DNA of 54,459 nt from Paracoccaceae bacterium (GTDB lineage: Bacteria > Pseudomonadota > Alphaproteobacteria > Rhodobacterales > Rhodobacteraceae), in the NCBI GenBank assembly GCA_016938875.1, contig JAFGTV010000061.1, forward strand, positions 1-54,459. Reading direction: 5' to 3'. The notes beneath the pieces are model-generated. The model saw nothing but the letters and a program-made list of their open reading frames with translations. It did not search any database and had not been told where the DNA came from. Of this stretch, positions 2,147 through 44,025 are shown one piece after another. The translations under genes were made by a program, and so were the position numbers. Within the stretch, counting starts at the first letter, position 1. Each line of letters begins with the position of its first letter.

Positions 2147-3112
2147 TCAGCAATAGGTTCGTTGGTCGAGGTCGATATGCGCGATCGCGCGCTCGCACTC
2201 TGACAGAAAGGCGGCCTCTGCATCCGACATGCGGCGGTTGGGGTTGGTCAGGAGGTAGATGTTCACAAGCGGCAGGTTGTCATAGGGCGGAAGCTGACGG
2301 AGCCGGTTGAGGTCCACATCGCGACGGGCAACATGAAGCGGCAGCGCACCGATCCCGATATTCGCCACGATCATGCGCCGCAATTCGTGCAGGTTCGACG
2401 ACACGCCGCGCCACCCTGTCGTGATCTTTGCCCGGGCCCGCAACCGGGCGACAGGCTCCAGCGGGCCGCCTTCGGTCTCGGTCTGGAACGAAACCGAGGG
2501 TTCCCCCTCGAGATCGGCCAGATCAATCTCGTCGCGGGAAAACAACTCGTGGCGCGGCCCGCAGAACAGGCCAAAATACTCGCGGTAGAGCACAGAGGCT
2601 TTCAAACCTGTCGGAATTTTGTGCAAAAGACAGATTCCAAGGCCCGTGCGGTTCTGGCTGACGCGGCTGACAATTTCTTCGCTCTCGGCCACTGTGAACG
2701 CAAATGTCACCTTTGGGTGCTTTGTCGCAAAGCCATGCAGCATGTCGTCGAAATGCTCTGAGATGACGTGTGACGCCACCGCAATCGAGATGTGGCCACG
2801 CAAATCCTCGCCGCCGATTTCCAGAAGGGACGGCAGTTGCGAGATAGACCCGAAGATTGACGAGCATTGCGAATAAAGCACCTGTCCTGCGCGGGTGACT
2901 TTGAATTCATTGGGTTTTCGGATGATAAGCCGCTGACCCGTGACCTGTTCCAGCCGCTTTAGCGCCGAAGAGATCGTCGGCTGCTTCAACCCCAGGAAAT
3001 CGGCCGCGCGAGAGATCCCGCGTTGTTCGACAACCACCATGAAGGTGCGCAGGAGATTCCAATCGAGCTGCCAGGGGAACCGTTGTTCATAAGGCCTCAT
3101 CATAAATCTCAT
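2147..3112 (-). CDS. LysR family transcriptional regulator
   Basis: This 321-residue protein has an N-terminal winged helix-turn-helix at about residues 16-75 (WNLLRTFMVVVEQRGIS, AADFLGLKQPTISSALKRLE) followed by a periplasmic-binding-protein-like effector domain. It is transcribed divergently from the amino-acid transport and catabolic operon starting at 3252, the classical LysR arrangement, so it most likely senses the imported compound or a catabolite and controls that operon. The start is uncertain. ATG at 3112, 3103 and 3100 are all in frame and none has a strong Shine-Dalgarno; the later starts would leave the AT-rich control region entirely upstream. Confidence 0.9.
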   Translation of the reverse strand: MRFMMRPYEQRFPWQLDWNLLRTFMVVVEQRGISRAADFLGLKQPTISSALKRLEQVTGQRLIIRKPNEFKVTRAGQVLYSQCSSIFGSISQLPSLLEIGGEDLRGHISIAVASHVISEHFDDMLHGFATKHPKVTFAFTVAESEEIVSRVSQNRTGLGICLLHKIPTGLKASVLYREYFGLFCGPRHELFSRDEIDLADLEGEPSVSFQTETEGGPLEPVARLRARAKITTGWRGVSSNLHELRRMIVANIGIGALPLHVARRDVDLNRLRQLPPYDNLPLVNIYLLTNPNRRMSDAEAAFLSECERAIAHIDLDQRTYC

Positions 3113-3251
3113 CTATGTTAAGAATTCACATTATTTATTTGCGCGATGATTCCGGCCGTGCAAGCGTTTTTGTCAAGGCGGCCCGGTGTACCCGACCGTT
3201 TGCCCGGCCCGGAGCTGAAACAAGCCGCCAATGCACCAACAGGAGAATGAC
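3098..3251. promoter_or_regulatory. Divergent promoter/operator region between the LysR gene and the catabolic operon
   Basis: An AT-rich patch at about 3098-3145 stands out from the GC-rich surroundings and separates the two divergent transcripts. It contains CATA at 3101-3104 and TATG at 3114-3117, an inverted repeat with a 9-base centre that fits the loose T-N11-A LysR box, plus a GAATTC palindrome. It overlaps the possible LysR start codons, which would suit autoregulation. Assignment as operator is inference. AGGAG at 3240-3244 is the ribosome-binding site of the binding-protein gene. Confidence 0.5.
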
Positions 3252-4043
3252 ATGACCAAGCGCAGAACCTTTATCAAAACCGCCGTCGCCGCGGGCTCCT
3301 TCGGCCTGGCCGGCCTTGCGACCACCCTGCCCGCCTCGGCCGACGAACTGGCCAAGCTTGAGGACGCCGGCGTGATGCGGATCGCCATGTCGGGCGCGTA
3401 TCCGCCGTTCAACTTCGTCAATGACCAGAACGAAGTTGTCGGCTTTGATCCGGCGATCGGCACCGAAATCGCCAAGCGGATGGGCCTTGAGGTCGAGATC
3501 ATCACCACGGCGTGGGACGGTATCATCGGCGGGCTGCTGGCCAATAAATACGACGCCATCGTAGGGTCGATGTCGATCACCGACGAGCGCAAGAAAGTCG
3601 TCGATTTCGTCGGCCCCTACTACCGGATGAGCCGCGGCATCTTCGTGGCCGACGGCAGCGATGTGAAAAGCCTGGACGATCTCGCCGACGCGACCATCGG
3701 CGTGACGCTGGGCGAAACCCATGAAGAGTGGGCCAAGGACCAGGGTTACAAGGTGCGCACCTACAAGGGTCTGCCCGAACTTTTGCTGGAGCTTGAGAAC
3801 GGGCGCATCGACGCCATCGTGACCGATGACATCCCGGTCCTGCTCGCGATCCGCGAAAACGGCAAGGCAATCGTTCAACTCGACACATCCGGCCTAGAGG
3901 GCGTGGCGGATCAGGCCGGCATCGCCGTGCGCAAAGGCAACCCCGAACTTGTCGCGGCAATGCAGGCGGCACTGGACGCGATGCAGGCGGACGGCACCTA
4001 TCTTGCGATCGCCAAAGAGTGGGTCGGCGGCGACATCCGCTAA
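3252..4043 (+). CDS. ABC transporter substrate-binding protein, polar amino acid type, with twin-arginine-like signal
   Basis: This 263-residue periplasmic binding protein (bacterial extracellular solute-binding family 3) captures an amino acid or related polar compound for the importer encoded next. The leader reads TKRRTFIKTAV, then a hydrophobic stretch and a PASADE cleavage region. The RRxFIK core resembles a Tat signal, unusual for these proteins, which mostly use Sec. The mature protein shows AYPPFNFV, VGFDPAIGTEIAKRMG and SMSITDERKK, all family hallmarks. AGGAG 7 bases upstream fixes the ATG at 3252 rather than 3231. First gene of the operon. Confidence 0.9.
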   Translation: MTKRRTFIKTAVAAGSFGLAGLATTLPASADELAKLEDAGVMRIAMSGAYPPFNFVNDQNEVVGFDPAIGTEIAKRMGLEVEIITTAWDGIIGGLLANKYDAIVGSMSITDERKKVVDFVGPYYRMSRGIFVADGSDVKSLDDLADATIGVTLGETHEEWAKDQGYKVRTYKGLPELLLELENGRIDAIVTDDIPVLLAIRENGKAIVQLDTSGLEGVADQAGIAVRKGNPELVAAMQAALDAMQADGTYLAIAKEWVGGDIR

Positions 4044-4049
4044 GCCAGC

Positions 4050-4090
4050 CCGGCCGGCCCGCGCCCATCCGGGCCCGAGGCCGGCCGTTT
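4050..4090 (+). terminator. Long GC hairpin after the binding-protein gene, probable attenuator
   Basis: CGGCCGG at 4051-4057 pairs with CCGGCCG at 4081-4087, and GGCCCG (4056-4061) with CGGGCC (4070-4075) can form an inner alternative stem. TTTCCCCCC follows. Such a structure between a binding protein and its permeases commonly raises binding-protein mRNA over downstream mRNA. The T-tract is short, so readthrough into the permeases is expected. Confidence 0.5.
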
Positions 4091-4118
4091 CCCCCCGTAA
4101 CCGTAAGGGCCGATCCAA

Positions 4119-4766
4119 ATGGACTGGGAGCTCATTCTCAAGGTCTACCCGTATTTCCTTGAGGCCGCGTGGGTCACGATCCAGCTGTCGGTATTGACCG
4201 TCGCGCTGGGTCTGGTTTGCGGGGCGTTGGGGGCGGCGGCACGGCTCTCGCGTTTTGCGCTGCTACGGTTCCTGGGGGCGGCCTATGTCAGCGTCATTCG
4301 CGGCACACCGGCGCTGATCCAGCTCTTCCTGCTTTACTTTGGCGGGCCCCAGATCGGGATCCAGCTGGACGCGTTCGAGGCCGGCGTCATCGGCCTTGGG
4401 ATCAACATCGGCGCCTACATGACCGAGACCATGCGCGGCGCCATCATTTCCGTCGATCGCGGTCAGGGCGAGGCTGCGCGCACACTCGGCCTGTCGCAGT
4501 TCCAGGCCTTTCGCAAAGTGGTGCTGCCGCAGGCGCTTCGTCTGATGATCCGTCCGCTGGGCGTGAACATCAACGCACAGATCAAGGGGACCGCCCTGGT
4601 CGCCGCGATCTCTGTGGTCGAACTGACCTATACCGCCCAGCGTTATATCGGCTCGACCTACAAGCCGTTCGAAATGTTCATGCTCTCGGGCCTGCTCTAC
4701 ATGGCCATCATTTATGCAACCGGGAAAGGGATCACCTATCTCGACAGCCGGGTGCGCCTGCAATGA
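4119..4766 (+). CDS. ABC transporter permease, polar amino acid (HisM/HisQ) family
   Basis: This 215-residue inner-membrane subunit has about five helices. The family's N-terminal YFLEAAWVTIQLSV block is present, as is the cytoplasmic EAA loop that contacts the ATPase ([22 protein letters not shown]). It should pair with the second permease encoded 27 bases downstream to form the heteromeric channel. It sits 75 bases after the binding-protein gene, across the hairpin at 4050-4090. Confidence 0.9.
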   Translation: MDWELILKVYPYFLEAAWVTIQLSVLTVALGLVCGALGAAARLSRFALLRFLGAAYVSVIRGTPALIQLFLLYFGGPQIGIQLDAFEAGVIGLGINIGAYMTETMRGAIISVDRGQGEAARTLGLSQFQAFRKVVLPQALRLMIRPLGVNINAQIKGTALVAAISVVELTYTAQRYIGSTYKPFEMFMLSGLLYMAIIYATGKGITYLDSRVRLQ

Positions 4767-4793
4767 TCCGCCAATGCCTGAAAGGAGCCTGCC

Positions 4794-5450
4794 ATGGGGC
4801 TTGATTTCTCCGTCGTCCCCGGCTGGCTGGACACGATCTTGCTCGGTGGGCTCTGGACCATTGCCATCACCCTGAGCGCCGCAGTGCTGAGTTTTGTGGG
4901 CGGCATCCTCTTTGCGGTGATCGCGCTTTATGCACCTTGGATCGTGCGCCAGCCGTTTCGACTGTTTGCCTGGCTGTTCATGGGCACACCGCTGCTGCTG
5001 CAATTGTTCCTGATCTATTTCGGCCTGATCCAGATCGGCATCAACCTGCCCGCTTTCGTTGCCGGCGTGATTGGCCTGGGCCTGCATTTTGCTGTCTACA
5101 ACTCGGAACTGATCCAGACGGCCATCGTCGCCGTCGACAAGGGCCAGATGGAGGCCGCGCGCACCCTCGGCCTGTCGCGCAGCCAGGCCTTGCGCAAGGT
5201 CGTGGTCCCGCAGGCCGTGCGCGACGTGATCCCGCCGATCGGCAACAACATGATCGCGCTTTTGAAAGACTCCGCGCTGGTCTCGGTGATCGGGGTCGGA
5301 GAGCTGACGCTGTCGGCCCAGCTTGCCATTGGCCGCACCTACCGGCCGTTTGAATTCTACCTGGTGGCCGCTGTTTGCTACTACATCATCAACCTCGGGA
5401 TGGAGGCTGTGTTGCGCCGGATCGAACGCCGCACCGCGCTCTCCCGCTGA
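4794..5450 (+). CDS. ABC transporter permease, polar amino acid family (second subunit)
   Basis: This 218-residue membrane protein is paralogous to the preceding permease. Its EAA loop reads [20 protein letters not shown] and is followed by [21 protein letters not shown], the conserved TM block of glutamine/histidine-type permeases. AAAGGAG lies shortly before the ATG at 4794. With its neighbour it forms the translocation channel for the substrate delivered by the binding protein at 3252. Confidence 0.9.
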
Positions 5451-5467
5451 GCCCGCGAGGAACAGCC

Positions 5468-6238
5468 ATGACCGACCCCCAGCATTTCGTCGAAATTCGC
5501 CACGCCCAGAAATCCTATGGCAAGTTCGAGGTTCTCAAGGATATCAGCCTGACCGTCGAACGCGGACAGATCGTGGCGATCATCGGCCCCTCCGGCTCGG
5601 GCAAGTCCACGCTTTTGCGCGCGATCAACGATCTGGACCCGCTGACAGGCGGCGAGATCTGGCTAGACGGCGTGCAGGTGAACAAGAAGCTGCCGCACCG
5701 CCAATACGAAAAGCACATCAACGCGATGCGCCAGCACGTCGGGATGGTGTTTCAGCACTTCAACCTGTTCCCCCACCTCACCGTGCGCGAGAACGTGACG
5801 ATGGCGCCCAAGCTGCTGAAGGGGATTTCCGAGGATGAGGCGAACAAACTCGCTGAGGAACAGCTCAACCATGTCGGGATGATCGAACGGATCGACTACT
5901 ATCCGTCGCAACTCTCGGGCGGGCAGAAACAGCGCGTTGCCATCGCCCGGGCACTGGCCATGCGGCCCAAGTTGATGCTTTTCGACGAGGCGACGTCGGC
6001 GCTCGACCCCGAACTGGTCGAAGAGGTGAACCAGGTCATGAAAACCCTCGCCGAGGAGCACATGACCATGATCATCGTCACCCACGAAATGGACTTTGCC
6101 GCCTCGGTCTGCGACCGGGTGCTGTTCATGGATCAGGGCGTCGTGGTCGAGGAAGGGCCGCCCGAAAAGGTCTTTCGCAATCCCGACCAGGAAAGAACCC
6201 GCGAGTTTCTGCGAAAACACCTGGAAGGTGCCAAGTGA
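5468..6238 (+). CDS. ABC transporter ATP-binding protein, polar amino acid (GlnQ/HisP) family
   Basis: This 256-residue ATPase energises the importer. Visible motifs are Walker [10 protein letters not shown]-loop [10 protein letters not shown], signature LSGGQKQR, Walker B LMLFDEAT and switch His in VTHEM. The ATG at 5468 is preceded by GAGGAA. An in-frame start at 5375 lies inside the upstream permease and its extra residues do not match the family. The gene ends in GTGA, which overlaps the GTG start of the aminotransferase by 4 bases, so transport and catabolism are translationally coupled. Confidence 0.92.
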
Positions 6239-7590
6239 TCGACCAACCCTCTCACCTGTTTTACCAGTCCCGCAATCCCCGCCCCTTTCTCGACCGTGGC
6301 GAAGGCATCTATCTCTTCGACCAGTCGGGCAAGCGTTTCATCGACGGCTCGTCGGGGGCGATGGTGTCGAATATCGGCCATTCCGATCCGCGTGTGCTGG
6401 CGGCCATGAGGGCACAGATGGACCGCGCCACGTTTGGCTATCGCCTGCATTTCCGCACCGAAGCGTCGGAACAACTGGCGACGAAAACGGCGGCCATGAT
6501 GCCCGATGGGCTTGACCGGGTATTTTTCGTCTCGGGCGGGTCCGAAGCGGTGGAAAGCGCGGTCAAACTGGCCCGCCAATACGCCCTGACCCAAGGCCAG
6601 GCGAACCGCTGGAAAGTGATCTCGCGCTTTCCCTCTTATCATGGCTGCACCTTGGGGGCGCTGGCGCTGACCGGGTACGATCCGCTGGCGCGTCCGTTCG
6701 ATCCGATGATGAACGACATGCCCAAGATACCGGCGCCCACCACCTATCTGGACCGCGACAACCTGACAGAGCACGATCGCGGACTGAAATACGCCGAGAT
6801 GCTGCGCGACCGTATCCTGGCCGAAGGGCCCGAAACGGTGCTGGCCTTTATCATGGAGCCGATCGGCGGTGCATCGACGGGGGCCCTGGTCGCGCCCGAC
6901 AGCTATTACGGCCGCGTCCGCGAAATCTGCGACGAGTTCGGCGTGCTGCTGATCTACGACGAGGTGATGACCGGCGCCGGGCGCACCGGCAAATTCCTCG
7001 CAGCCGAACATTGGGGCATCACCCCCGACATCGTTGCCCTGTCCAAGGGGTTTGGCGCGGGCTATGTGCCGCTGGGGGCCACGGTGGCGGGCCCCGGGAT
7101 CGTCGAGCCGATCCTGGACGCCGGCGGTTTCCTGCACGGCTTTACCTATGCCGGCAATCCGCTTGCCTGCGCCGCCGGGCTTGCCGTCCTGGGCGTGCTC
7201 GAAACCGACGGGCTGATCGACAACGCCGCCCGCATGGGCGACATCCTCAAGGCGCGGCTCACCGGGCTGATGGATCGTTACCCCTTTATCGGCGATGTGC
7301 GCGGCAAGGGGCTGTTGCTGGCGTTCGAGCTGGTCTCGGACCGCGAAACCATGACACCCCTGCCCAAAGGGCTGAACGCGTTTCACGAGTTGGTCGAACT
7401 GGCCTACGAGCGCGGCCTGATCATCTATGCGCGCCGCACGCGGGGCGGTGTCGAAGGGGATCATTTCCTGGTCTGTCCCCCGCTTATCGTGACCGAAGCG
7501 CAGATCGACGAAATCATGGCCATCCTGACCGACGGCCTGGACGCGCTGGCAACAAAACTGGGGCTTGCGATCATGGAGGGCGCGGCATGA
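6235..7590 (+). CDS. Class III aminotransferase, candidate beta- or omega-amino acid:pyruvate/2-oxoglutarate transaminase
   Basis: This 451-residue PLP enzyme of the omega-aminotransferase subgroup has [20 protein letters not shown] for cofactor phosphate binding, [13 protein letters not shown] for the PLP-ring Asp, and [15 protein letters not shown] holding the Schiff-base Lys. A GTG start overlaps the upstream ATPase gene by 4 bases. Followed by a CoA-transferase and thiolase with no oxidoreductase, its best-fitting role is to convert a 3-amino acid to a 3-oxo acid for CoA activation. That role is inferred from the operon; sequence alone gives only the subgroup. Confidence 0.88.
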
Positions 7591-7700
7591 TGGGCGCGCA
7601 GACCGTGCAAGGCCAGCCAGAAAACGCCCCCCCACGCATCCGGGTTGATCTGCTATTCGGGCCGCCTCGGACGCTTGCCCCGCACGAGGCGGCGGCATGA
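7587..7700 (+). CDS. Possible 37-residue coupling ORF between the aminotransferase and CoA-transferase genes
   Basis: A short frame starts at ATG 7587 inside the aminotransferase ATGA stop and ends in the ATGA that starts the CoA-transferase alpha subunit at 7697. Both junctions are therefore 4-base stop/start overlaps. The 37-residue product resembles no family I know. If translated, it would carry ribosomes across an otherwise untranslated 106-base gap. It may equally be chance; there is no homology evidence. Confidence 0.3.
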   Translation: MMGAQTVQGQPENAPPRIRVDLLFGPPRTLAPHEAAA

Positions 7701-8389
7701 GGCTGGCCGACAAATCCACGACGATGCAAGAGGCCCTTAGCGGACTGGGGGACGGCGCGACCGTAATGGTCGGCGGGTTCGGCGTGCCGGGCACCCCGTT
7801 TACCCTGATCCGCGACCTGGTGCGGTTGGGCCTGCGGAACCTGACGGTGATCAAGAACGACGCCAATGAGACCGGAATGGGCATCGACCACCTGCTTGCC
7901 TCGGGGCAGGTCACCCGCCTGATCACCACCCATATCGGCCTGAACCCGCGCGCCATCGAGATGATGAATTCCGGCGCGATCGAGGTCGAGTTCAACGCCC
8001 AAGGCATCCTTGCCGAGCGGATCCGCGCGGGTGGCGCGGGGCTTGGTGGCATCCTGACCGATATCGGTGAAGAGACGGAACTGACCGCGGGCAAACCGCG
8101 CATCGAGATCGCCGGAAAGCGCCTTGTCGTCGAAACCGCCCTGCGAGCCGACGTGGCGCTGATCCATGCCGAGCGGGCCGATCCGTTCGGCAACCTGCGC
8201 TACGTTGCGACCGCGCGCAATTTCAATCCGTTGATGGCCATGGCCGCCGACCGCGTGATCGCCGAGGCAGAGCGTATCGTGCCGCTTGGCGATCTGGCGG
8301 GCGATGATGTCCACACCCCCGGCCCTTTTGTCGACCATGTGGTCGCGTTGGGCCCCCTCAGCGAGGAATACGCCGTTGTCCGACGCTAG
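7697..8389 (+). CDS. 3-oxoacid CoA-transferase-type, subunit A
   Basis: This 230-residue subunit belongs to the family I CoA-transferases (AtoD, ScoA, PcaI type). These move CoA from succinyl-CoA or acetyl-CoA to a carboxylic acid. The VGGFGVPGTP block near residues 22-31 is the family's GGFGxxGxP oxyanion motif, and LRADVALIHAERADPFGNL matches the second signature. It overlaps the subunit B start by about 14 bases, so the subunits are made stoichiometrically. With the following thiolase the likely substrate is a 3-oxo acid; the acid itself is not identifiable. Confidence 0.9.
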   Translation: MRLADKSTTMQEALSGLGDGATVMVGGFGVPGTPFTLIRDLVRLGLRNLTVIKNDANETGMGIDHLLASGQVTRLITTHIGLNPRAIEMMNSGAIEVEFNAQGILAERIRAGGAGLGGILTDIGEETELTAGKPRIEIAGKRLVVETALRADVALIHAERADPFGNLRYVATARNFNPLMAMAADRVIAEAERIVPLGDLAGDDVHTPGPFVDHVVALGPLSEEYAVVRR

Positions 8390-9029
8390 GAACAGGATGG
8401 TCGCCCGCGCCGCCCGCGAAATCGCGCCGGGCATGGTGGTGAACCTGGGGATCGGGTTGCCGACCAAGGTGGTCGACCACCTCGACCCGGATCTTTCGGT
8501 GTGTCTGCATACCGAGAACGGGTTATCGGGGATTGGCCCGACGCTGCCGCCCGAATGCGCCAACAGCAATCTGATCGACGCGGGCGGCGCCTATGTCTCG
8601 ACCGTGCCGGGATCTGCCTTTTTCGACAGTGCGGTCAGCTTTGCGCTGGTGCGCTCGGGGCGGCTTGATCTCACCATGTTGGGCGCCTTCGAGGTTTCGC
8701 AATCGGGGGATCTGGCCAACTGGAAAATCCCCGGCAGGTTCTCTCCGGGCGCGGGCGGCGGCATTGAACTGGCCCAAAAGGCGCGCCGCGTCGTGGTGCT
8801 GACCACCCACACCGATCGCGCCGGCAACCCAAAGCTAAAGGATACCTGCACCCTGCCGATCACCGCGCGGGGCTGTGTGGCGCGTATTTTCACCGACATG
8901 GCCGTGATCGACGTCACGCCCGCGGGATTTGCGCTGATCGAACTGGCCCACGGGGTAAGCGCGGCCGAGGTATGCGCGGCGACCGGCGCGGCGCTGGCCC
9001 TGCCCCGTGGCGACATCCCAACCTTTTGA
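8376..9029 (+). CDS. 3-oxoacid CoA-transferase-type, subunit B
   Basis: The 217-residue beta subunit carries the catalytic Glu in LHTENGLSGIGP (the S/T-ENG signature) and the VNLGIGLPT N-terminal block. The end IELAHGVSAAEVCAATG is typical of AtoA/PcaJ/ScoB proteins. I chose TTG 8376, which has GAGGAA 7 bases upstream and gives the family-like N-terminus SDARNRMVARAAREI. An ATG at 8397 is the alternative. It forms the active heteromer with the subunit encoded at 7697. Confidence 0.88.
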   Translation: MSDARNRMVARAAREIAPGMVVNLGIGLPTKVVDHLDPDLSVCLHTENGLSGIGPTLPPECANSNLIDAGGAYVSTVPGSAFFDSAVSFALVRSGRLDLTMLGAFEVSQSGDLANWKIPGRFSPGAGGGIELAQKARRVVVLTTHTDRAGNPKLKDTCTLPITARGCVARIFTDMAVIDVTPAGFALIELAHGVSAAEVCAATGAALALPRGDIPTF

Positions 9030-9037
9030 GAAAGCTG

Positions 9038-10330
9038 ATGGATCAAACCCTGCAAACCCGTCTTATCAATGCCGTTGACGCCGCTTTCGACGATCAGATC
9101 GCGTTTCTGTGCGAACTCACCGCGCATCCCTCGACGCGCGGCAACGAGCAGAGCGCGCAGGACTTCATGGCCGACGCACTGGCGGGCCGGGGCTATGAGG
9201 TCGACCGCTGGCGGATCGACGTGGACGAAATCCGCCATATGCCGGGATTCTCGCCGGTTCTTACCCCCTATGATGACGCCGTGAACGTGGTCGGCATCCA
9301 CCGCAGCCGCACAGGGACGGGCCGCTCGCTGATCCTCAACGGTCATGTCGATGTCGTGCCCGAGGGGCCGCTGGATATGTGGGACAGCCCCCCCTTTGCG
9401 CCCCATGTGGCCGACGGCTGGGTCTATGGGCGCGGCGCGGGGGATATGAAGGCCGGGCTTGCCTCCAACCTCTTTGCGCTGGATGCCTTGCGGCGCGTTG
9501 GCCTGGCCCCTGCGGCGGACGTGTTCTTTCAGTCGGTGGTCGAGGAGGAATGCACCGGCAATGGCGCGCTGGCCTGTCTTGCACGCGGCTATAGGGCCGA
9601 CGCGGCGCTGATCCCCGAACCCTTTGCCGAAACCCTGGTGACCGCCCAGCTGGGTGTGCTGTGGTTCCAGGTGCACCTGAAGGGGCTGCCGACGCATGTG
9701 GCCTATGCCGGCAGCGGCGCCAACGCGATCGAGGCCGCGGTCCCGCTCATCTCGGCGCTGCACGAGATGGAGGCACGCTGGAACGCCCCCGAAAACCGCA
9801 GCCCCGGCTACGCGCATATGGACCACGCGCTGAACCTCAATATCGGCAAGATCGAAGGCGGCGATTGGGCCAGCTCGGTGCCTGCATGGTGTGTCTTTGA
9901 TGTGCGCATGGCGATCTTTCCGGGTCAGAGCATCGAGGCGGCCAAGGCCGAAATCGAGGCGGTGCTGATGGCGGCGGCCCGGGACAACACATTTTTGAAG
10001 AATGCGCTTCCGCAGATCGTCTATCACGGCTTTCAGGCCGAGGGGTACGCGCTGTCCGATGACCGGGGCGACACCGCCGCCGCCGCCATCGGCGCCCTTG
10101 AGGCGGCCCATGGCACCGTCACCGGTGGCGTGCTGGACCGTGCCGCGATTACCGCCACCACCGATGCGCGCTTCTTTGGCCTTTATGCCGATACGCCCGC
10201 GTTGGTCTACGGCCTGCGCGCCGAGGCGATCCACGGCTTCAACGAGCGGGTCGAGATCGAAAGCATGCGGCGTGTGACGCAGACCACCGCGCTGTTCATC
10301 GCCGACTGGTGCGGCACCGAAGACATCTGA
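9038..10330 (+). CDS. M20 family metallopeptidase-like deacylase (ArgE/DapE/ACY1 type)
   Basis: This 430-residue zinc hydrolase probably cleaves an N-acyl amide. Metal and catalytic residues are visible in [11 protein letters not shown] (first His and the following Asp), [10 protein letters not shown] (bridging Asp) and [10 protein letters not shown] (catalytic Glu-Glu). The mid-protein dimerisation domain includes [20 protein letters not shown] 9038 has GAGAAAG just upstream. Inside an operon for amino acid uptake and beta-oxidation-like cleavage, it suggests that the imported compound, or a form of it, carries an N-acyl group. The true dapE is a separate gene at 33469. Confidence 0.88.
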
Positions 10331-10344
10331 GCAGGACACCCCCA

Positions 10345-11520
10345 ATGCGCCAAGCCGTCATCGTCTCTACCGCCCGCACGCCGATCGGCAAGGCCTATCG
10401 CGGGGCGTTCAATAACCTCGAAGGGCCCAGCCTGGCCGCCCATGCAGTTCGCGCCGCCGTCGCGCGGGCAGGGCTAGAGGGGGGCGAGATCGAGGATGCC
10501 GTATTTGGGGCGGCGCTTACCCAGGGCTCTACCGGTGTCAACGTCGCGCGCCACATCGCCCAGGCCTCGGGCCTGCCCGATGGCGTTGCGGGCGTGACCG
10601 TGGATCGGCAATGCGCCTCAGGGCTGAACGCGCTGGCCATCGCCGGGCATATGGTTGCGCATGAAGGGGCGGCCGTGGCGCTGGCCGGCGGGCTTGAGAG
10701 CATCTCGCTCGTGCAGGAAAGCCACTGGAACGACTACCGATACCGCGACCCCAGCGTTCGCGACGGGTATTACTTGTCGATGCTGGAAACCGCCGAGGTC
10801 GTGGCCGAACGCCATGGTGTCAGCCGCCAGGCGCAAGACGCCTATGCGCTGGAAAGCCAGGCGCGCACCGCGCGGGCACAGGCGGACGGCCTGTTCGCCG
10901 ACGAGATCATCCCCGTAGAGGCGGTCAAACTGGTAAAGGACAAGGCCACTGGCCAGATCCACGAGCAAGCGACACGGCTTGAGGCCGATGAATGCAATCG
11001 CCCCGGCACCACCGCCGAGGGGTTGGCCAGCCTCGTCCCGGTTTTGGGCCAGGGCAAGACCGTCACCGCAGGCAATGCCAGCCAGCTTTCGGACGGCGCG
11101 GCGGCGCTTGTGGTCATGGAGGCCGGCGAGGCGTCACGGCGCGGGCTGCAACCGTTGGGGGCCCTGCGCAGCTTTGTCGTTGCCGGTGTCGCCCCCGAGG
11201 AAATGGGGATCGGACCGGTGGTGGCCATCCCGCGCCTTCTGGGGCGCGCGGGGCTCAGGATCAGCGACATAGACCTGTGGGAGATCAACGAGGCCTTCGC
11301 CGCCCAACTGGTCTATTGCCGCGACCAGCTGGAGATCATGCCCGATCGGTTGAACGTCAACGGCGGGGCCATCTCGATCGGCCATCCCTATGGCATGTCG
11401 GGGGCGCGCATGGCAGGCCATATCTTGCGCGAGGGGCATCGGCGCGGCGCACGCTGGGGGGTCGTTTCGATGTGCGTCGGCGGGGGCCAGGGTGCGGCAG
11501 GATTGTTCGAAATATTCTGA
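10345..11520 (+). CDS. Acetyl-CoA acyltransferase (thiolase)
   Basis: This 391-residue thiolase II-type enzyme splits 3-oxoacyl-CoA with CoA. The nucleophilic Cys lies in [16 protein letters not shown] near residue 88. The His and second Cys blocks are [17 protein letters not shown] and [15 protein letters not shown]. The second block reads GMSGAR where most thiolases have GxTGAR, a minor difference. It is the last gene of the operon begun at 3252 and supplies the thiolytic end of the proposed pathway. Confidence 0.92.
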
Positions 11521-40631: not shown

Positions 40632-40702
40632 TAACGTAGTCGCGCCGAATTGTGAAAGCCCCCTTGGCATAAAATTGCGCATTCGTGACGAAAGGAAACG
40701 AC

Positions 40703-41701
40703 ATGTCCGAGGCCGTGGAAATGGTGGAAATCTGGCGCGGTGGCATGGCCGAGTCGCGCCATCGCGGCCATGCGGTGATCTGCGATGTCCAGGGCCAGGT
40801 GGTTCAGGCCTGGGGCGATCCCGACATGCTGATCCTGCCGCGGTCCTCGTGCAAGATGATCCAGGCCCTGCCGCTGATCGAAAGCGGGGCGGCGGACGCC
40901 GCTGGCCTGGGGGTCGAGGAACTGGCGCTGTCGTGCGCCTCGCATCAGGGCGCGCCGCTGCATGTGGATCGCGTGACGCGCTGGCTGGACGGGATCGGCA
41001 TGGCCGAGGCTGATCTGCGCTGCGGCGCGCAGCCCACCCGCGACCCGGCAGAGCGTGACAGGATGATCCGCGCGGGCGAGTTGGCAAACCAGGTCCACAA
41101 CAATTGCTCGGGCAAGCATGCGGGGTTTCTGACCTTGGGACAGCGGCTGGGTGCGGGGCCTGAATATGTCGACCCCGCCCACCCCGTGCAGCAGGCCGTG
41201 CGCGCCGCGTTCGAGGATGTGACCGGGATGGACAGCCCCCGGTTCGGCATCGACGGCTGTTCCGCCCCCAATTTCGCCACCAGCGTGCATGGGCTGGCCC
41301 GTGCCATGGCATTTTTCGCAGCCGCCCGCCCCGATGCGGGCGATGCACGCGCCCGCGCCGCCGGGCGGCTGGTACAGGCGATGATGGCCCATCCCGACCT
41401 GGTCGCCGGCGAGGGGCGGGCCTGCACCGAACTGATGCGCGCCATGGGTGGCAAGGCCGCCGTCAAGACCGGTGCCGAGGCGGTGTTCGTCGCGATCCTG
41501 CCCGAACTGGGCCTGGGCGTCGCGCTGAAGATCGAGGATGGCACGACCCGCGCCGCCGAGGCGGCGATCACCGGCATCCTGTCCCAACTGGGCGTTCTGG
41601 ATCCCAACCATCCCGCCGCGCGCAAACGGCTGGGCGCGCCGATCACCAACTGGCGCGGGATCGAGACCGGCGAGATCAGGTTGGCAGAGGGGTTTGCCTG
41701 A
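40703..41701 (+). CDS. Asparaginase, asparaginase II (thermolabile-type) family
   Basis: This 332-residue protein matches the alphaproteobacterial asparaginase II family, distinct from E. coli AnsA/B. Features are the N-terminal VEIWRGGMAESRHRGHAVI, PRSSCKMIQALPLIESGAA, LSCASHQGAP, NNCSGKHAGFL and IDGCSAPNFA, with conserved Ser/Lys/Cys residues around the proposed active site. It would hydrolyse asparagine to aspartate and ammonia in the cytoplasm. AAAGGAAA precedes ATG 40703. It is 66 bases before a PLP enzyme gene on the same strand. Confidence 0.9.
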   Translation: MSEAVEMVEIWRGGMAESRHRGHAVICDVQGQVVQAWGDPDMLILPRSSCKMIQALPLIESGAADAAGLGVEELALSCASHQGAPLHVDRVTRWLDGIGMAEADLRCGAQPTRDPAERDRMIRAGELANQVHNNCSGKHAGFLTLGQRLGAGPEYVDPAHPVQQAVRAAFEDVTGMDSPRFGIDGCSAPNFATSVHGLARAMAFFAAARPDAGDARARAAGRLVQAMMAHPDLVAGEGRACTELMRAMGGKAAVKTGAEAVFVAILPELGLGVALKIEDGTTRAAEAAITGILSQLGVLDPNHPAARKRLGAPITNWRGIETGEIRLAEGFA

Positions 41702-41767
41702 CACACGGGCTTGCCATGGGGGGGGATTGCGGCCCACAGTGGGGTGGCCGCTGGGAACAGGACCGCC

Positions 41768-43042
41768 ATGACCCACCCGCTGATGCAGCGTCGCGCCCGG
41801 CTGATGGGGCCGAACGTGCCCACCTTTTACGCCGATCCGGTGCATATCGTGCGCGGCGATGGGGTCTGGCTGTGGGATGCCGACGGGCGGCGCTATCTCG
41901 ACGGCTATAACAACGTCCCCCATGTCGGCCATTGCCATCCCCGCGTGGTCGAGGCCATTGCCCGCCAGGCCGCCACGCTGAACACCCACACCCGCTATCT
42001 GCATGACACCGTCCTGGATTACATCGAGCGTCTGACCGCCACGATGGGCCACGGGCTGAGCCAGGCGATCATGGTCTGCACCGGGTCCGAGGCCAACGAT
42101 GTCGCCCTGCGCATGGCCCAGGCCGTGACCGGCGCCACTGGCATCATCGCCACCGACAACACCTACCACGGCAATACCACCGCGGTCAGCGCGCTTTCGA
42201 CCCGCCGCCCGCCGATCGGCGGCTATCCCGGCCATGTCCGGCTGGTGCCCGCCCCCGACAGCCTGTCCCCGCTGGGTGGCAGCGCCGAGGGCCAGGCGCG
42301 CGCCTTTGCCGATCACATCGCCCGCGCCATCGTCGAGCTGGACGAGGCCGGGCATGGGCTGGCCGGGGTCATGCTGTGCCCGTTCTTCGCCAACGAGGGG
42401 TTCCCCACCCTGCCCAAGGGCTTTCTGGACCCCGCCGCCCAGGTGATCCGCGATGCCGGCGGGCTGATCCTGGCCGACGAGGTGCAGCCCGGATTTGGCC
42501 GGCTGGGCAGCGCATTTTGGGGGCATGAGGTGCTGGGCTTTGCCCCGGACGTGGTCACCCTGGGCAAACCGATGGCCAATGGCCACCCGGTCGGCGCGGT
42601 GGTGACGCGGCCCGACATCATGGCCGCGTTTCGGGGCGCGTTCGGCTATTTCAACACCTTCGGCGGCAACCCGGTTTCGGCCGCCGCCGCCCTGGCCACC
42701 CTTGATGTGATCCAGGACGAAGGCTTGCAGGAAAACGCCCGCGTGGTCGGCGCCTATGCGCTGGAGCGGATGGGCGCGCTGACCCATCCGCTGCTGGCCC
42801 AGGTGCGCGGACAGGGGCTGTTCTTCGGCGCGGAATTCGTGATGGACGACGGCACACCCGCCAGCGATTTCGTCGCAACCCTGGCCGAAGGGATGCGCGC
42901 CCGTGGGGTTCTGGTGAACCGGATCGGACGGGCGATGAATACCCTCAAGATCCGCCCGCCGATGCCGTTTTCACGCGAGAACGCCGATCTCATGATGGAT
43001 ACGCTGGCCCTGGTGCTGGCCGAAACAAAGGTGCCCCGATGA
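41768..43042 (+). CDS. Class III PLP enzyme resembling AGXT2L-type phospho-lyases
   Basis: This 424-residue fold-type I PLP enzyme carries blocks recalled from the ETNPPL/PHYKPL phospho-lyases: [71 protein letters not shown] (Schiff-base Lys) and [16 protein letters not shown]. Those enzymes split phosphoethanolamine or 5-phosphohydroxylysine into an aldehyde, ammonia and phosphate. The next gene, overlapping by 4 bases, is an APH-fold kinase able to make such a phospho-substrate. Ordinary transamination (alanine:glyoxylate type) cannot be excluded. Confidence 0.8.
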
Positions 43043-44025
43043 CCCAGGACGACACCCTGCCCCTGGCCCAAGAGGCCGCTAAGCACTGGCGCGGCTGCAC
43101 CGACCCCCACCTGATCTCGCACCGCGAAAACGCGGTCTACGCCGTCACCCTGCCCGCGGCCGAGAAAGGCGTGCTGCGCCTGCACCGCCGCGGCTATCAA
43201 AGCGAAGAGGCGATCCGGTCCGAGCTGTGGTGGTTGGACGCGCTGGCCAGTGCCGGCCTGTCGGTCCCCCGCCCCCAGCATACCGTCGACGGCGCCCTGC
43301 TGACGCAACTGGCCGATGGGCACGTGGCCTCGGTGCTGGCCTGGATGCCGGGGGCCGCATTGGGCACGGGCGGCACCCCGCTGCCCGGATCGCCCGATGA
43401 ACAGATGCGCCTTTATGCCAGTGCCGGACGCGCCATCGCCAACCTGCACGTCACCACCGATCGGCTGACGCTGCCGCCGAACTTTGCCCGCCCGCATTGG
43501 GATATCGACGGGCTGCTGGGCAGCGCACCGTTCTGGGGCCGATTCTGGGACCACCCCGCCGCCACCGAGGGTGAGTCCATCGTGATGTCAGAGGCGCGCC
43601 GATTTGCCCGCGAAAAGCTGACCGACTTCGCCGCCCGAGGCGGCGACCAAGGGCTGATCCACGCGGACCTGCTGCGCGAAAACATCCTGTTCGACGGGCC
43701 CCACGCGCATCTGATCGACTTCGACGATTGTGGTTTTGGGTTTCGACTCTACGACCTGGGCACGGCCCTGACGCCCAACCTGGAGGAACCCGCCCTGGAC
43801 CGGATCGCAACGGGGCTGATCGAGGGGTACGCGACCCTGCGCCCGCTTTCGGACGGGGACCTGGCGATGCTGCCCGTGTTCGTAATGCTCAGGACGCTGG
43901 CCTCTGTCGGCTGGACGATGCCGCGCCTGGCGCCTGGCGATCCGCGCATCCGCGCCTATCTGAACCGCGCGGTGCGCACGTCCCACGCCGTGCTGGAGGG
44001 GCAGCCGCTTTTCCACCTGGGCTGA
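43039..44025 (+). CDS. APH-fold phosphotransferase, candidate amino-alcohol (hydroxylysine/ethanolamine-like) kinase
   Basis: This 328-residue kinase of the aminoglycoside/choline phosphotransferase fold has the catalytic loop LIHADLLRENILFD and the metal-binding LIDFDDCGFG. VLRLHRRGYQSEEAIRSEL supplies the ATP-binding beta strands and Glu. The hydroxylysine kinase HYKK/AGPHD1 has the same fold. Coupling by a 4-base overlap (ATGA) to the phospho-lyase-like gene suggests it phosphorylates the lyase substrate. Specificity is not readable from sequence; homoserine- or choline-type kinases are alternatives. Confidence 0.8.
   Translation: MTQDDTLPLAQEAAKHWRGCTDPHLISHRENAVYAVTLPAAEKGVLRLHRRGYQSEEAIRSELWWLDALASAGLSVPRPQHTVDGALLTQLADGHVASVLAWMPGAALGTGGTPLPGSPDEQMRLYASAGRAIANLHVTTDRLTLPPNFARPHWDIDGLLGSAPFWGRFWDHPAATEGESIVMSEARRFAREKLTDFAARGGDQGLIHADLLRENILFDGPHAHLIDFDDCGFGFRLYDLGTALTPNLEEPALDRIATGLIEGYATLRPLSDGDLAMLPVFVMLRTLASVGWTMPRLAPGDPRIRAYLNRAVRTSHAVLEGQPLFHLG

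What the first reader, a model, noticed from the sequence alone, without database searches (positions are those of the whole stretch)
3098..11520. Operon for uptake and thiolytic breakdown of a probable N-acyl or beta-amino acid
A LysR gene is divergent from four polar-amino-acid ABC genes, then a class III aminotransferase, CoA-transferase A/B, M20 deacylase and thiolase, mostly linked by 4-14 base overlaps or short gaps. No dehydrogenase or hydratase is present. A 3-oxoacyl-CoA could therefore come directly from transamination of a 3-amino acid plus CoA transfer, and the deacylase implies an N-acyl form. The chemistry fits N-acyl-beta-amino acids (for example a beta-lysine-like or 3-aminobutyrate-like compound). 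I know of no named pathway with exactly this gene set. Pathway and substrate are inferred.
Basis: partly seen in the sequence, partly recalled or inferred. Interest (0 to 1): 0.75.

Follow-up and report, generated by a model that had tools for sequence, protein, structure and literature searches.

The report
Operon for eating acetyl-beta-lysine
A common set of genes in marine alphaproteobacteria most likely imports and dismantles (acetyl-)beta-lysine, a salt-protection molecule of methane-making microbes, keeping one amino group capped by acetyl while the chain is cut; this would give genes to an old pathway that, as far as I recall, has few or none assigned.

Summary
In detail: LysR divergent from nine genes (four ABC, class III aminotransferase, CoA-transferase A/B, M20 deacylase, thiolase), expected active-site residues present. 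Of 80 related loci, 65 keep LysR+ABC+aminotransferase, 62 CoA-transferase A/B, 61 M20, 41 thiolase. The logic is read from replacements. [quoted passage not shown] the kits mix in 0 of 80. Four of these keep the window's regulator and transporter. Both kits sometimes carry the same small N-acetyltransferase. Rhizobial versions use another aminotransferase, closest to solved beta-transaminases, on plasmids with a lysine-2,3-aminomutase-like gene (9 of 9 rhizobial records listed; adjacent in one). Best reading: (N6-acetyl-)beta-lysine catabolism: acetyl caps the distal amine, the beta-amine is transaminated, the 3-oxo acid becomes a CoA ester and is thiolysed, the cap comes off last, giving 4-aminobutyrate. 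This matches a recalled Pseudomonas pathway. The window's genome (95% complete) lacks detectable aminomutase, AblB and this acetyltransferase, so it probably imports the acetylated osmolyte. Substrate inferred, not assayed.

The parts
2147..3112 (-). LysR-family regulator, divergent from the operon
   Evidence: PF00126/PF03466; 65 of 80 loci keep LysR with the ABC genes and AT; 51-53% identical LysR divergent from the rhizobial cassettes L119-L121
3113..3251 (.). Divergent intergenic region, presumed operator/promoter; ATGTTAAGAATTCACAT at 3115-3131 is palindrome-like
   Evidence: direct reading; the ATGT-N9-ACAT form is in 1 of 66 intergenic regions (the window's own), so not conserved as such
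3252..4043 (+). Polar-amino-acid ABC substrate-binding protein (SBP_bac_3)
   Evidence: PF00497; Arg and Asp at ArgT positions 77 and 161 in 61 of 61 aligned sequences, Ser/Thr in place of Asp11 in 61 of 61
4119..4766 (+). ABC permease 1
   Evidence: PF00528
4794..5450 (+). ABC permease 2
   Evidence: PF00528
5468..6238 (+). ABC ATPase (EhuA/GlnQ-like)
   Evidence: PF00005; TIGR03005 320.7 bits, below its cut-off 345.4
6235..7590 (+). Class III PLP aminotransferase; proposed N6-acetyl-beta-lysine transaminase (EC 2.6.1.65, number recalled)
   Evidence: PF00202; best NCBIfam PRK07483 and PRK06917, both below cut-off; trees
7587..7700 (+). 37-codon ORF with ATGA overlaps to both neighbours, at the place where L001, L002, L030 and L064 carry a GNAT acetyltransferase; possibly a remnant, not shown
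   Evidence: no likeness to the GNATs of L001, L002, L064 was seen by eye
7697..8389 (+). 3-oxoacid CoA-transferase subunit A
   Evidence: TIGR02429 over cut-off
8379..9029 (+). 3-oxoacid CoA-transferase subunit B
   Evidence: TIGR02428 over cut-off
9041..10330 (+). M20 ArgE/DapE-type deacylase; proposed 4-acetamidobutyrate (or its CoA ester) deacetylase
   Evidence: NF005306 622 bits (cut-off 376) and TIGR01910 304 (217.6); NF005373 307 bits, below cut-off 428
10345..11520 (+). Thiolase; proposed 6-acetamido-3-oxohexanoyl-CoA thiolase
   Evidence: TIGR01930 over cut-off; catalytic Cys/His/Cys present

Best explanation
The operon imports and degrades N6-acetyl-beta-lysine (or, in relatives with the acetyltransferase, beta-lysine that is first acetylated on its 6-amine). 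Steps: (1) ABC uptake; (2) in GNAT-bearing relatives only, acetylation of the distal amine; (3) transamination of the 3-amine to 6-acetamido-3-oxohexanoate; (4) CoA transfer to 6-acetamido-3-oxohexanoyl-CoA; (5) thiolysis to acetyl-CoA and 4-acetamidobutyryl-CoA; (6) return of CoA, possibly by the same CoA-transferase to the next 3-oxo acid; (7) M20 deacetylation to 4-aminobutyrate and acetate, then the GABA shunt. The acetyl group acts as a protecting group that keeps the 3-oxo acid from cyclising. Shown: gene content, conservation, the alternative kit BKACE+amidohydrolase behind close relatives of the same aminotransferase, co-occurrence of sister cassettes with a lysine-2,3-aminomutase-like gene. 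Inferred: substrate identity, chain length, order of steps, every enzyme activity.
For: (a) In 12 of 80 loci BKACE (PF05853) and an HDAC-type amidohydrolase (PF00850; best solved relatives of the L075 copy named acetylpolyamine amidohydrolase) stand together by the AT; CoA-transferase and BKACE co-occur in 0 of 80, M20 and the amidohydrolase in 0 of 80. (b) Four of them (L010, L018, L025, L044) keep the window's LysR, four ABC genes and AT; their AT is 78-80% (median) identical to the CoA-transferase-kit ATs and 66-67% to the other BKACE-kit ATs. On the best AT tree each trait needs 3 changes and both switch together in 3 of 3 independent pairs. So the AT product is most simply a free beta-keto acid, and an N-acetyl amine must be opened. 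(c) One GNAT family occurs with both kits: AT-GNAT-CoA-transferase (L001, L002, L030, L064), AT-BKACE-GNAT-amidohydrolase (L018, L025, L044; Shinella, Phyllobacterium, Pararhizobium plasmids): acetylation and deacetylation in one catabolic operon implies a capped second amine. (d) Rhizobial LysR<>CtA-CtB-M20-thiolase-GNAT-AT cassettes (enzymes 62-70% identical) use a different AT; that of L119 has as best solved matches two beta-transaminases and a beta-phenylalanine aminotransferase. (e) All 9 rhizobial plasmid records listed with M20 at 66-70% (H3-H11) carry a KamA-like gene 79-100% identical to that of Rhizobium sp. C104, where it lies 435 bases upstream of the cassette on the same strand. 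(f) SBP keeps the two zwitterion-binding residues and has lost the acid for a cationic side chain in 61 of 61 (roles recalled). (g) Own genome has SSADH over cut-off.
Against: No enzyme was assayed. The number of swaps is not settled: a tree with one clade for all 17 BKACE rows against the 61 CoA-transferase rows is not rejected (AU p 0.064; without L155 p 0.27); an earlier p of 3.4e-41 also forced eight unassigned rows apart and is not a fair test. The rhizobial KamA belongs to TIGR03822, a hypothetical equivalog ('lysine-2,3-aminomutase-like', 556 bits), well under the cut-off of validated AblA (291 of 525 bits); relatives of it lie beside genX/epmA (H54, H59), so it may serve EF-P; outside C104 it is about 10, 20, 37-47 and 120 kb from M20, and S. 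meliloti plasmids H50-H53 carry it without a listed close M20. The nine records are five species (five are S. meliloti); the two window-type Rhodobacterales plasmids (H1, H2) are not among the 40 listed of 116 KamA records. KamA is over cut-off in 1 of 47 genomes holding these loci, AblB in 0 of 398: the makers of the substrate are elsewhere. The BKACEs of L078 and L151 pass NF053538, named for 3,5-dioxohexanoate. 5 of 80 loci have neither CoA-transferase nor BKACE near the AT; thiolase was not found in 21 of 62 CoA-transferase loci (some end at a contig edge). SBP has a conserved Glu at ArgT position 120 that could hold a cation, and the Shinella SBP, beside a GNAT, has the same Ser. Creatininase-like (17 of 80) and amidohydrolase/racemase-like genes (31 and 29 of 80) in relatives are unexplained.
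Confidence: 0.65

Rival explanations
1. Same chemistry, different chain: the substrate is another N-acetylated diamino beta-amino acid (for example a beta-ornithine-like one), giving beta-alanine or another omega-amino acid.
For: Chain length is fixed by no gene seen; the evidence holds for any beta,omega-diamino acid.
Against: Link of sister cassettes to a lysine-2,3-aminomutase-like gene; N6-acetyl-beta-lysine is a documented major osmolyte of methanogens at high salt (PMC1224877 passages).
Confidence: 0.15
2. One reading: an N-acyl-beta-amino acid with one amine (3-aminobutyrate type) is imported, deacylated first by M20, then transaminated, CoA-activated and thiolysed.
For: Gene content of the window alone allows it; M20 enzymes often cleave N-acyl amines (general knowledge).
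Against: Does not explain an acetyltransferase in the same operons, nor the aminomutase link, nor an acetylpolyamine-type amidohydrolase as replacement.
Confidence: 0.1
3. The cassette handles beta-lysine released from a beta-lysine-containing conjugate or peptide (creatininase-like and M20D genes in relatives opening it), with the GNAT as a detoxifying acetyltransferase.
For: Creatininase-like gene in 17 of 80 loci, DoeB2-like amidohydrolase in 31 and racemase-like gene in 29; ATP-grasp or biotin-carboxylase-like ligase genes near rhizobial cassettes; a weak match of the L001 GNAT to streptothricin acetyltransferase (1.7e-4).
Against: None of these extra genes is in the operon of the window; the GNAT matches six other models better.
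Confidence: 0.07

Closest known systems
beta-Lysine degradation of Pseudomonas (acetyltransferase, N6-acetyl-beta-lysine transaminase EC 2.6.1.65, thiolysis, 4-acetamidobutyrate(-CoA) deacetylase); recalled, not read here
   Same: Every step has a fitting gene family in the window or in its relatives.
   Different: The window has no acetyltransferase. I know of no genes assigned to the pathway; phrase searches of the held library gave 1 paper (unrelated by title), 0 and 2 (neither on this by title).
Bacillus subtilis kamA-yodP-yodQ-yodR-yodS-yodT cluster (gene order recalled; KamA BSU19690 and YodT BSU19740 read in passages of PMC6522883)
   Same: Class III aminotransferase, M20, CoA-transferase A/B (families of yodQ-S recalled).
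   Different: Bacillus makes its own beta-lysine (KamA) and its genes are sporulation-controlled; here there is an ABC importer, LysR and thiolase, no KamA or AblB. Window proteins stay below the cut-offs of PRK06917 and PRK06915, which I take (recall) for the Bacillus-type models; each was over cut-off in 1 of 14 controls, not named.
Clostridial lysine fermentation (KAM, 5,6-aminomutase, dehydrogenase, Kce, ammonia lyase; figure legend in PMC3149608)
   Same: BKACE/Kce-type enzyme in the replacement kit; beta-keto acid intermediate.
   Different: Transamination instead of dehydrogenase, acetyl cap, no 5,6-aminomutase in the operon; the BKACEs tested are nearer NF053538 than Kce.
Ectoine uptake and degradation (EhuABCD, Doe/Eut; recalled)
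   Same: EhuA-like ATPase, M20-type deacetylase, ABC import of an osmolyte.
   Different: No ectoine hydrolase in the operon; beta-keto acid chemistry instead.

Membership tests
N6-acetyl-beta-lysine degradation (Pseudomonas type, recalled) | Acetyltransferase for the 6-amine of beta-lysine | tested here: not met
   No linked GNAT in the window; GNAT family model A1 finds 0 matches at E<=1e-15 in the 95%-complete own genome; a copy is seen in 7 of 62 CoA-transferase-kit relatives, one (L007) with stops. Not needed if the acetylated form is imported
N6-acetyl-beta-lysine degradation (Pseudomonas type, recalled) | Transaminase acting on the beta-amine | tested here: inconclusive
   Class III AT; its product is most simply a beta-keto acid because BKACE accompanies close relatives; sister cassette uses a beta-transaminase relative; no assay
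N6-acetyl-beta-lysine degradation (Pseudomonas type, recalled) | CoA activation and thiolytic cleavage of a 3-oxoacyl-CoA | tested here: met
   TIGR02429, TIGR02428, TIGR01930 over cut-off; gene families only
N6-acetyl-beta-lysine degradation (Pseudomonas type, recalled) | Deacetylase for 4-acetamidobutyrate or its CoA ester | tested here: inconclusive
   M20 ArgE/DapE family, an acetylpolyamine-type amidohydrolase in its place in relatives
N6-acetyl-beta-lysine degradation (Pseudomonas type, recalled) | Growth on and enzymatic conversion of beta-lysine | not testable with these tools
   needs experiment
Bacillus kamA-yodPQRST cluster | Lysine 2,3-aminomutase and AblB-type acetyltransferase | tested here: not met
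   no match in the own genome
Bacillus kamA-yodPQRST cluster | PRK06917 aminotransferase and PRK06915 M20 over cut-off | tested here: not met
   426 of 535 bits and 307 of 428 bits; each is the best scorer of the own genome, the AT only just (426.3 against 424.0)
Clostridial lysine fermentation | 5,6-aminomutase, 3,5-diaminohexanoate dehydrogenase, Kce | tested here: not met
   none among the genes of the operon; not sought elsewhere in the genome

The most novel reading that the evidence does not exclude
Marine and saline-habitat Rhodobacterales carry a dedicated, widespread salvage route for N6-acetyl-beta-lysine, the osmolyte of methanogenic archaea, with acetyl kept as a protecting group through chain cleavage, and evolution has built the back half of it from two unrelated sets of enzymes (CoA-transferase/thiolase/M20 versus BKACE/HDAC-type amidohydrolase). 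This would give genes to orphan enzymes such as EC 2.6.1.65 and define an archaea-to-bacteria osmolyte flow.
Probability: 0.4. Interest if true: 0.75.

Novelty: new variant of a known kind. Interest (0 to 1): 0.62.

Why it matters
If right, it assigns genes (aminotransferase, CoA-transferase, thiolase, two unrelated deacetylases, acetyltransferase, importer) to a pathway known to me only from old biochemistry, and suggests that about one genus in five of this family (59 of 295 genomes with the aminotransferase) may live partly on an archaeal-type osmolyte. In the plasmid records read the same genes are annotated as 'aspartate aminotransferase family', 'ArgE/DapE family deacylase' and 'histone deacetylase family', so database records would gain a function. 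It also offers a natural case of two non-homologous enzyme kits behind the same importer and first enzyme.

Tried and rejected
Rejected: missing-oxidoreductase idea (not needed; BKACE loci show the keto acid can come from the aminotransferase). GABA transaminase for the AT: 245.5 of 676 bits. Deinococcus KamA neighbourhoods: no cassette; a Bacillus plasmid CoA-transferase lies by biotin and 3-hydroxybutyrate genes and a Peribacillus one in what looks like an aromatic-compound cluster, neither relevant. Paracoccus KamA: no cassette in the stretch. Azospirillum and Nitratireductor M20 relatives of 50-55% lie in other operons, so M20 alone is not diagnostic. AblB hits in Pseudomonadota: 63 of 398 genomes at E<=0.001, none over cut-off; no cassette gene at E<=1e-15 in any of the 33 short loci L081-L113. 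LysR operator: the palindrome form is in 1 of 66 regions. GNAT remnant in the window's 106-base gap: no likeness seen. Of the four own-genome GNAT hits I read only the best: it lacks the family's YxQDL stretch. The paper search for yod genes gave one relevant paper.

Changed on checking: the AU test was unfair, since eight unassigned rows were held on the other side; repeated against the 61 CoA-transferase rows only it does not reject one BKACE clade (p 0.064; 0.27 without L155), so 'three swaps' holds for the best tree only. My odds did not rest on the number of swaps and are unchanged.

Limits: the 80 loci are the best 80 of 183 found by patterns from this aminotransferase, so they lean to close relatives; identity thresholds were set by hand (33-60%); gene picks held wrong-strand ORFs and were replaced by the tblastn table. 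Trees are 'quick' ones; three pairs cannot reach significance in the sign test (p 0.25). L038 and L062 have no row in the trees. 13 rows (seven other class III ATs of the own genome, the three rhizobial ATs, L117, L123, L127) were dropped between the 99-row tree and the 86-row tree. In Rhizobium sp. CB3171 (L153) the operon has GNAT and amidohydrolase but no BKACE.
Full report
Observation. The window holds LysR 2147-3112 (-) facing a run of nine genes on the + strand: SBP 3252-4043, two permeases, ATPase, class III aminotransferase (AT) 6235-7590, CoA-transferase A 7697-8389 and B 8379-9029, M20 deacylase 9041-10330, thiolase 10345-11520. Pfam and NCBIfam agree on the families. Among the models shown, NCBIfam gives no function-specific name over its cut-off to AT, M20 or thiolase: AT is nearest PRK07483 and PRK06917 (both below cut-off), M20 passes only the general subfamilies PRK06837 and TIGR01910, thiolase only TIGR01930. 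Residues expected for catalysis are conserved across the relatives aligned.

Conservation. A scan of genome contigs with the AT gave 183 relatives, of which the best 80 were kept. By tblastn with hand-set thresholds: LysR+SBP+P1+P2+ATPase+AT in 65 of 80, CoA-transferase A and B in 62, M20 in 61, thiolase in 41; all ten genes in 41. The AT loci reach Rhodobacterales, Hoeflea and other Hyphomicrobiales, Aestuariispiraceae and Woeseiaceae (titles, labels). In a spread of 295 genomes of the window's family 59 have a close AT.

A second kit. In 13 of 80 loci the AT is accompanied by BKACE and in 13 by an HDAC-type amidohydrolase, both together in 12 (families of one copy each; closest solved relatives of the L075 amidohydrolase are named acetylpolyamine amidohydrolase, and of the L078 BKACE DUF849/3-keto-5-aminohexanoate cleavage protein). 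CoA-transferase with BKACE: 0 of 80. M20 with the amidohydrolase: 0 of 80. Neither CoA-transferase nor BKACE: 5 of 80 (L065, L071, L072, L074, L079). Four loci with the second kit (L010, L018, L025, L044) have the same regulator and four ABC genes as the window; their ATs are 78-80% (median) identical to first-kit ATs and 66-67% to other second-kit ATs, and on the best tree they sit inside the first-kit clade. On an 86-row AT tree (78 rows assigned to a kit, 76 with both traits seen) each trait needs three changes and both switch together in three of three independent pairs. Against this, a tree holding all 17 BKACE rows together against the 61 CoA-transferase rows is not rejected (AU p 0.064; p 0.27 without L155), so one exchange could suffice. 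Among tree rows the pairs were 60 CoA-transferase/M20, 16 BKACE/amidohydrolase, no mixed row, two with one trait unseen. BKACE enzymes cleave free beta-keto acids with acetyl-CoA (established knowledge; one studied relative takes neutral beta-keto acids such as 3,5-dioxohexanoate, PMC11961710 passage). So the product of this AT is most simply a beta-keto acid and its substrate a beta-amino acid, and what the deacylase removes is most simply an acetyl on an amine.

A cap. One GNAT family (16 rows aligned, 48% mean column identity, invariant Q-D motif) recurs: between AT and CoA-transferase in L001, L002, L030, L064; beside LysR in L007 (with stops), L023, L029; between BKACE and the amidohydrolase in L018, L025, L044 and on plasmids of Shinella, Phyllobacterium and Pararhizobium; near the AT in L072, L077, L079. 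Together 13 of 80 loci. An acetyltransferase and a deacetylase in one catabolic operon make sense if the acetyl is a protecting group on a second amine. The own genome has no member (E<=1e-15), no AblB and no KamA match; with 95% completeness this suggests import of the acetylated compound. Across 48 genomes with such loci searched (G000 and 47 others), 22 have a match to the GNAT family at E<=1e-15.

Link to lysine. Plasmid searches with M20 found rhizobial cassettes LysR<>CtA-CtB-M20-thiolase-GNAT-AT (L119, L120, L121) and, in Rhizobium sp. C104, kamA-like - CtA-CtB-M20-thiolase-GNAT (L115; a class III AT is annotated only at the far edge of that stretch). Enzymes are 62-70% identical to the window's and LysR 50-53%. 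Their AT is not of the same family: the one searched (L119) has as best solved matches two beta-transaminases and a beta-phenylalanine aminotransferase. In one search, 12 of 95 records have M20 at 60-80% identity and 11 of these are listed: H1 and H2 are window-type Rhodobacterales operons, H3-H11 are rhizobial. All nine rhizobial ones also hold a KamA-like gene at 79-100% identity to that of C104 (H41-H49): five species, adjacent in one (435 bases), about 10 kb (R. bangladeshense), 20 kb (R. leguminosarum), 37-47 kb (S. meliloti) and 120 kb (S. medicae) from M20 in the others. H1 and H2 are not among the 40 listed of 116 KamA records. Against the link stands that the gene is of TIGR03822, a hypothetical equivalog, not of validated AblA (two copies tested), that relatives occur beside epmA/genX, and that S. 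meliloti records H50-H53 have it without a listed close M20.

Ligand hints. Against E. coli ArgT the SBP family keeps Arg77 and Asp161 (61 of 61) and replaces Asp11 by Ser or Thr (61 of 61), with Trp for Phe52, Thr for Leu117, Glu for Ser120 and His for Gln122 (61 of 61 each). From memory, Arg77/Asp161 hold the amino acid's carboxylate and amine and Asp11 the lysine side-chain ammonium. A zwitterion with an uncharged tail, as N6-acetyl-beta-lysine is, would fit; the new Glu leaves room for doubt. The Shinella SBP, whose operon has a GNAT, has the same Ser, so this does not separate the two import forms.

Mechanism. Best reading: import; (acetylation); transamination to 6-acetamido-3-oxohexanoate; CoA transfer; thiolysis to acetyl-CoA + 4-acetamidobutyryl-CoA; CoA return; deacetylation to GABA + acetate; then succinate (SSADH over cut-off in the own genome; a GABA transaminase was not identified, though eight class III ATs are present). 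In the second kit BKACE does in one step what CoA-transferase and thiolase do in two. The free 6-amino-3-oxo acid would be expected to cyclise (chemical reasoning), hence the cap. Thiolase was not found in 21 of 62 first-kit loci, where one encoded elsewhere would have to serve.

Known and new. The chemistry is that of the Pseudomonas beta-lysine pathway as I recall it from 1970s-80s papers (EC 2.6.1.65 and acetamidobutyrate deacetylases), which I could not read here. The B. subtilis kamA-yodPQRST cluster is the nearest gene set; its order is recalled, while the locus tags of kamA and yodT and the statement that the role of KamA is undetermined and YodT uncharacterised come from passages of PMC6522883. 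N6-acetyl-beta-lysine as methanogen osmolyte: passages of PMC1224877. Library searches (listings seen only, several capped) showed no paper assigning genes to this degradation; the library holds open-licence PMC papers only. Hence: new variant of a known kind, with gene assignment as the new part.

Noticed in passing
window 40685-44025: Asparaginase-like gene, a second class III aminotransferase (nearest PRK06148, below cut-off) and an APH-family-like phosphotransferase in one run (first and last named by eye); looks like the parts of PRK06148-type kinase-aminotransferase fusions kept as separate genes.
   Followed up: partly
L009, L011, L026 and others (31 and 29 of 80 loci): A DoeB2-like M20D amidohydrolase and an alanine-racemase-like gene follow the first kit, and in L155 the BKACE-amidohydrolase kit; perhaps they open a conjugate or change stereochemistry of the substrate.
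   Followed up: partly
L001:5081-5872 and 16 other loci: A creatininase-family hydrolase gene is found in 17 of 80 loci, mostly between the SBP and first permease genes; role unknown.
   Followed up: no
L115, L119, L120, L121, L153: Rhizobial plasmids with the cassette also carry ATP-grasp or biotin-carboxylase-like ligase, CapA, MFS or dimethylformamidase-beta-like genes in one or another record; may be a biosynthetic cluster using beta-lysine.
   Followed up: no
G402:C1:561353-561646 (L007 genome): The GNAT copy in Planktotalea arctica carries in-frame stops, as if the acetyltransferase is being lost.
   Followed up: no
L116:7395-8994: CoA-transferase of the S. meliloti ml46 pSymA cassette is annotated as five pieces; the cassette seems decayed there.
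   Followed up: no
G000:C58:155837-157012: Own genome has EctB over cut-off (588 of 552 bits), so the organism probably makes ectoine and lives in saline settings.
   Followed up: no
L066-L068, L071, L073-L075, L080: In 8 of 80 loci a TRAP transporter (DctM counted) is present and the ABC importer genes are not seen.
   Followed up: partly
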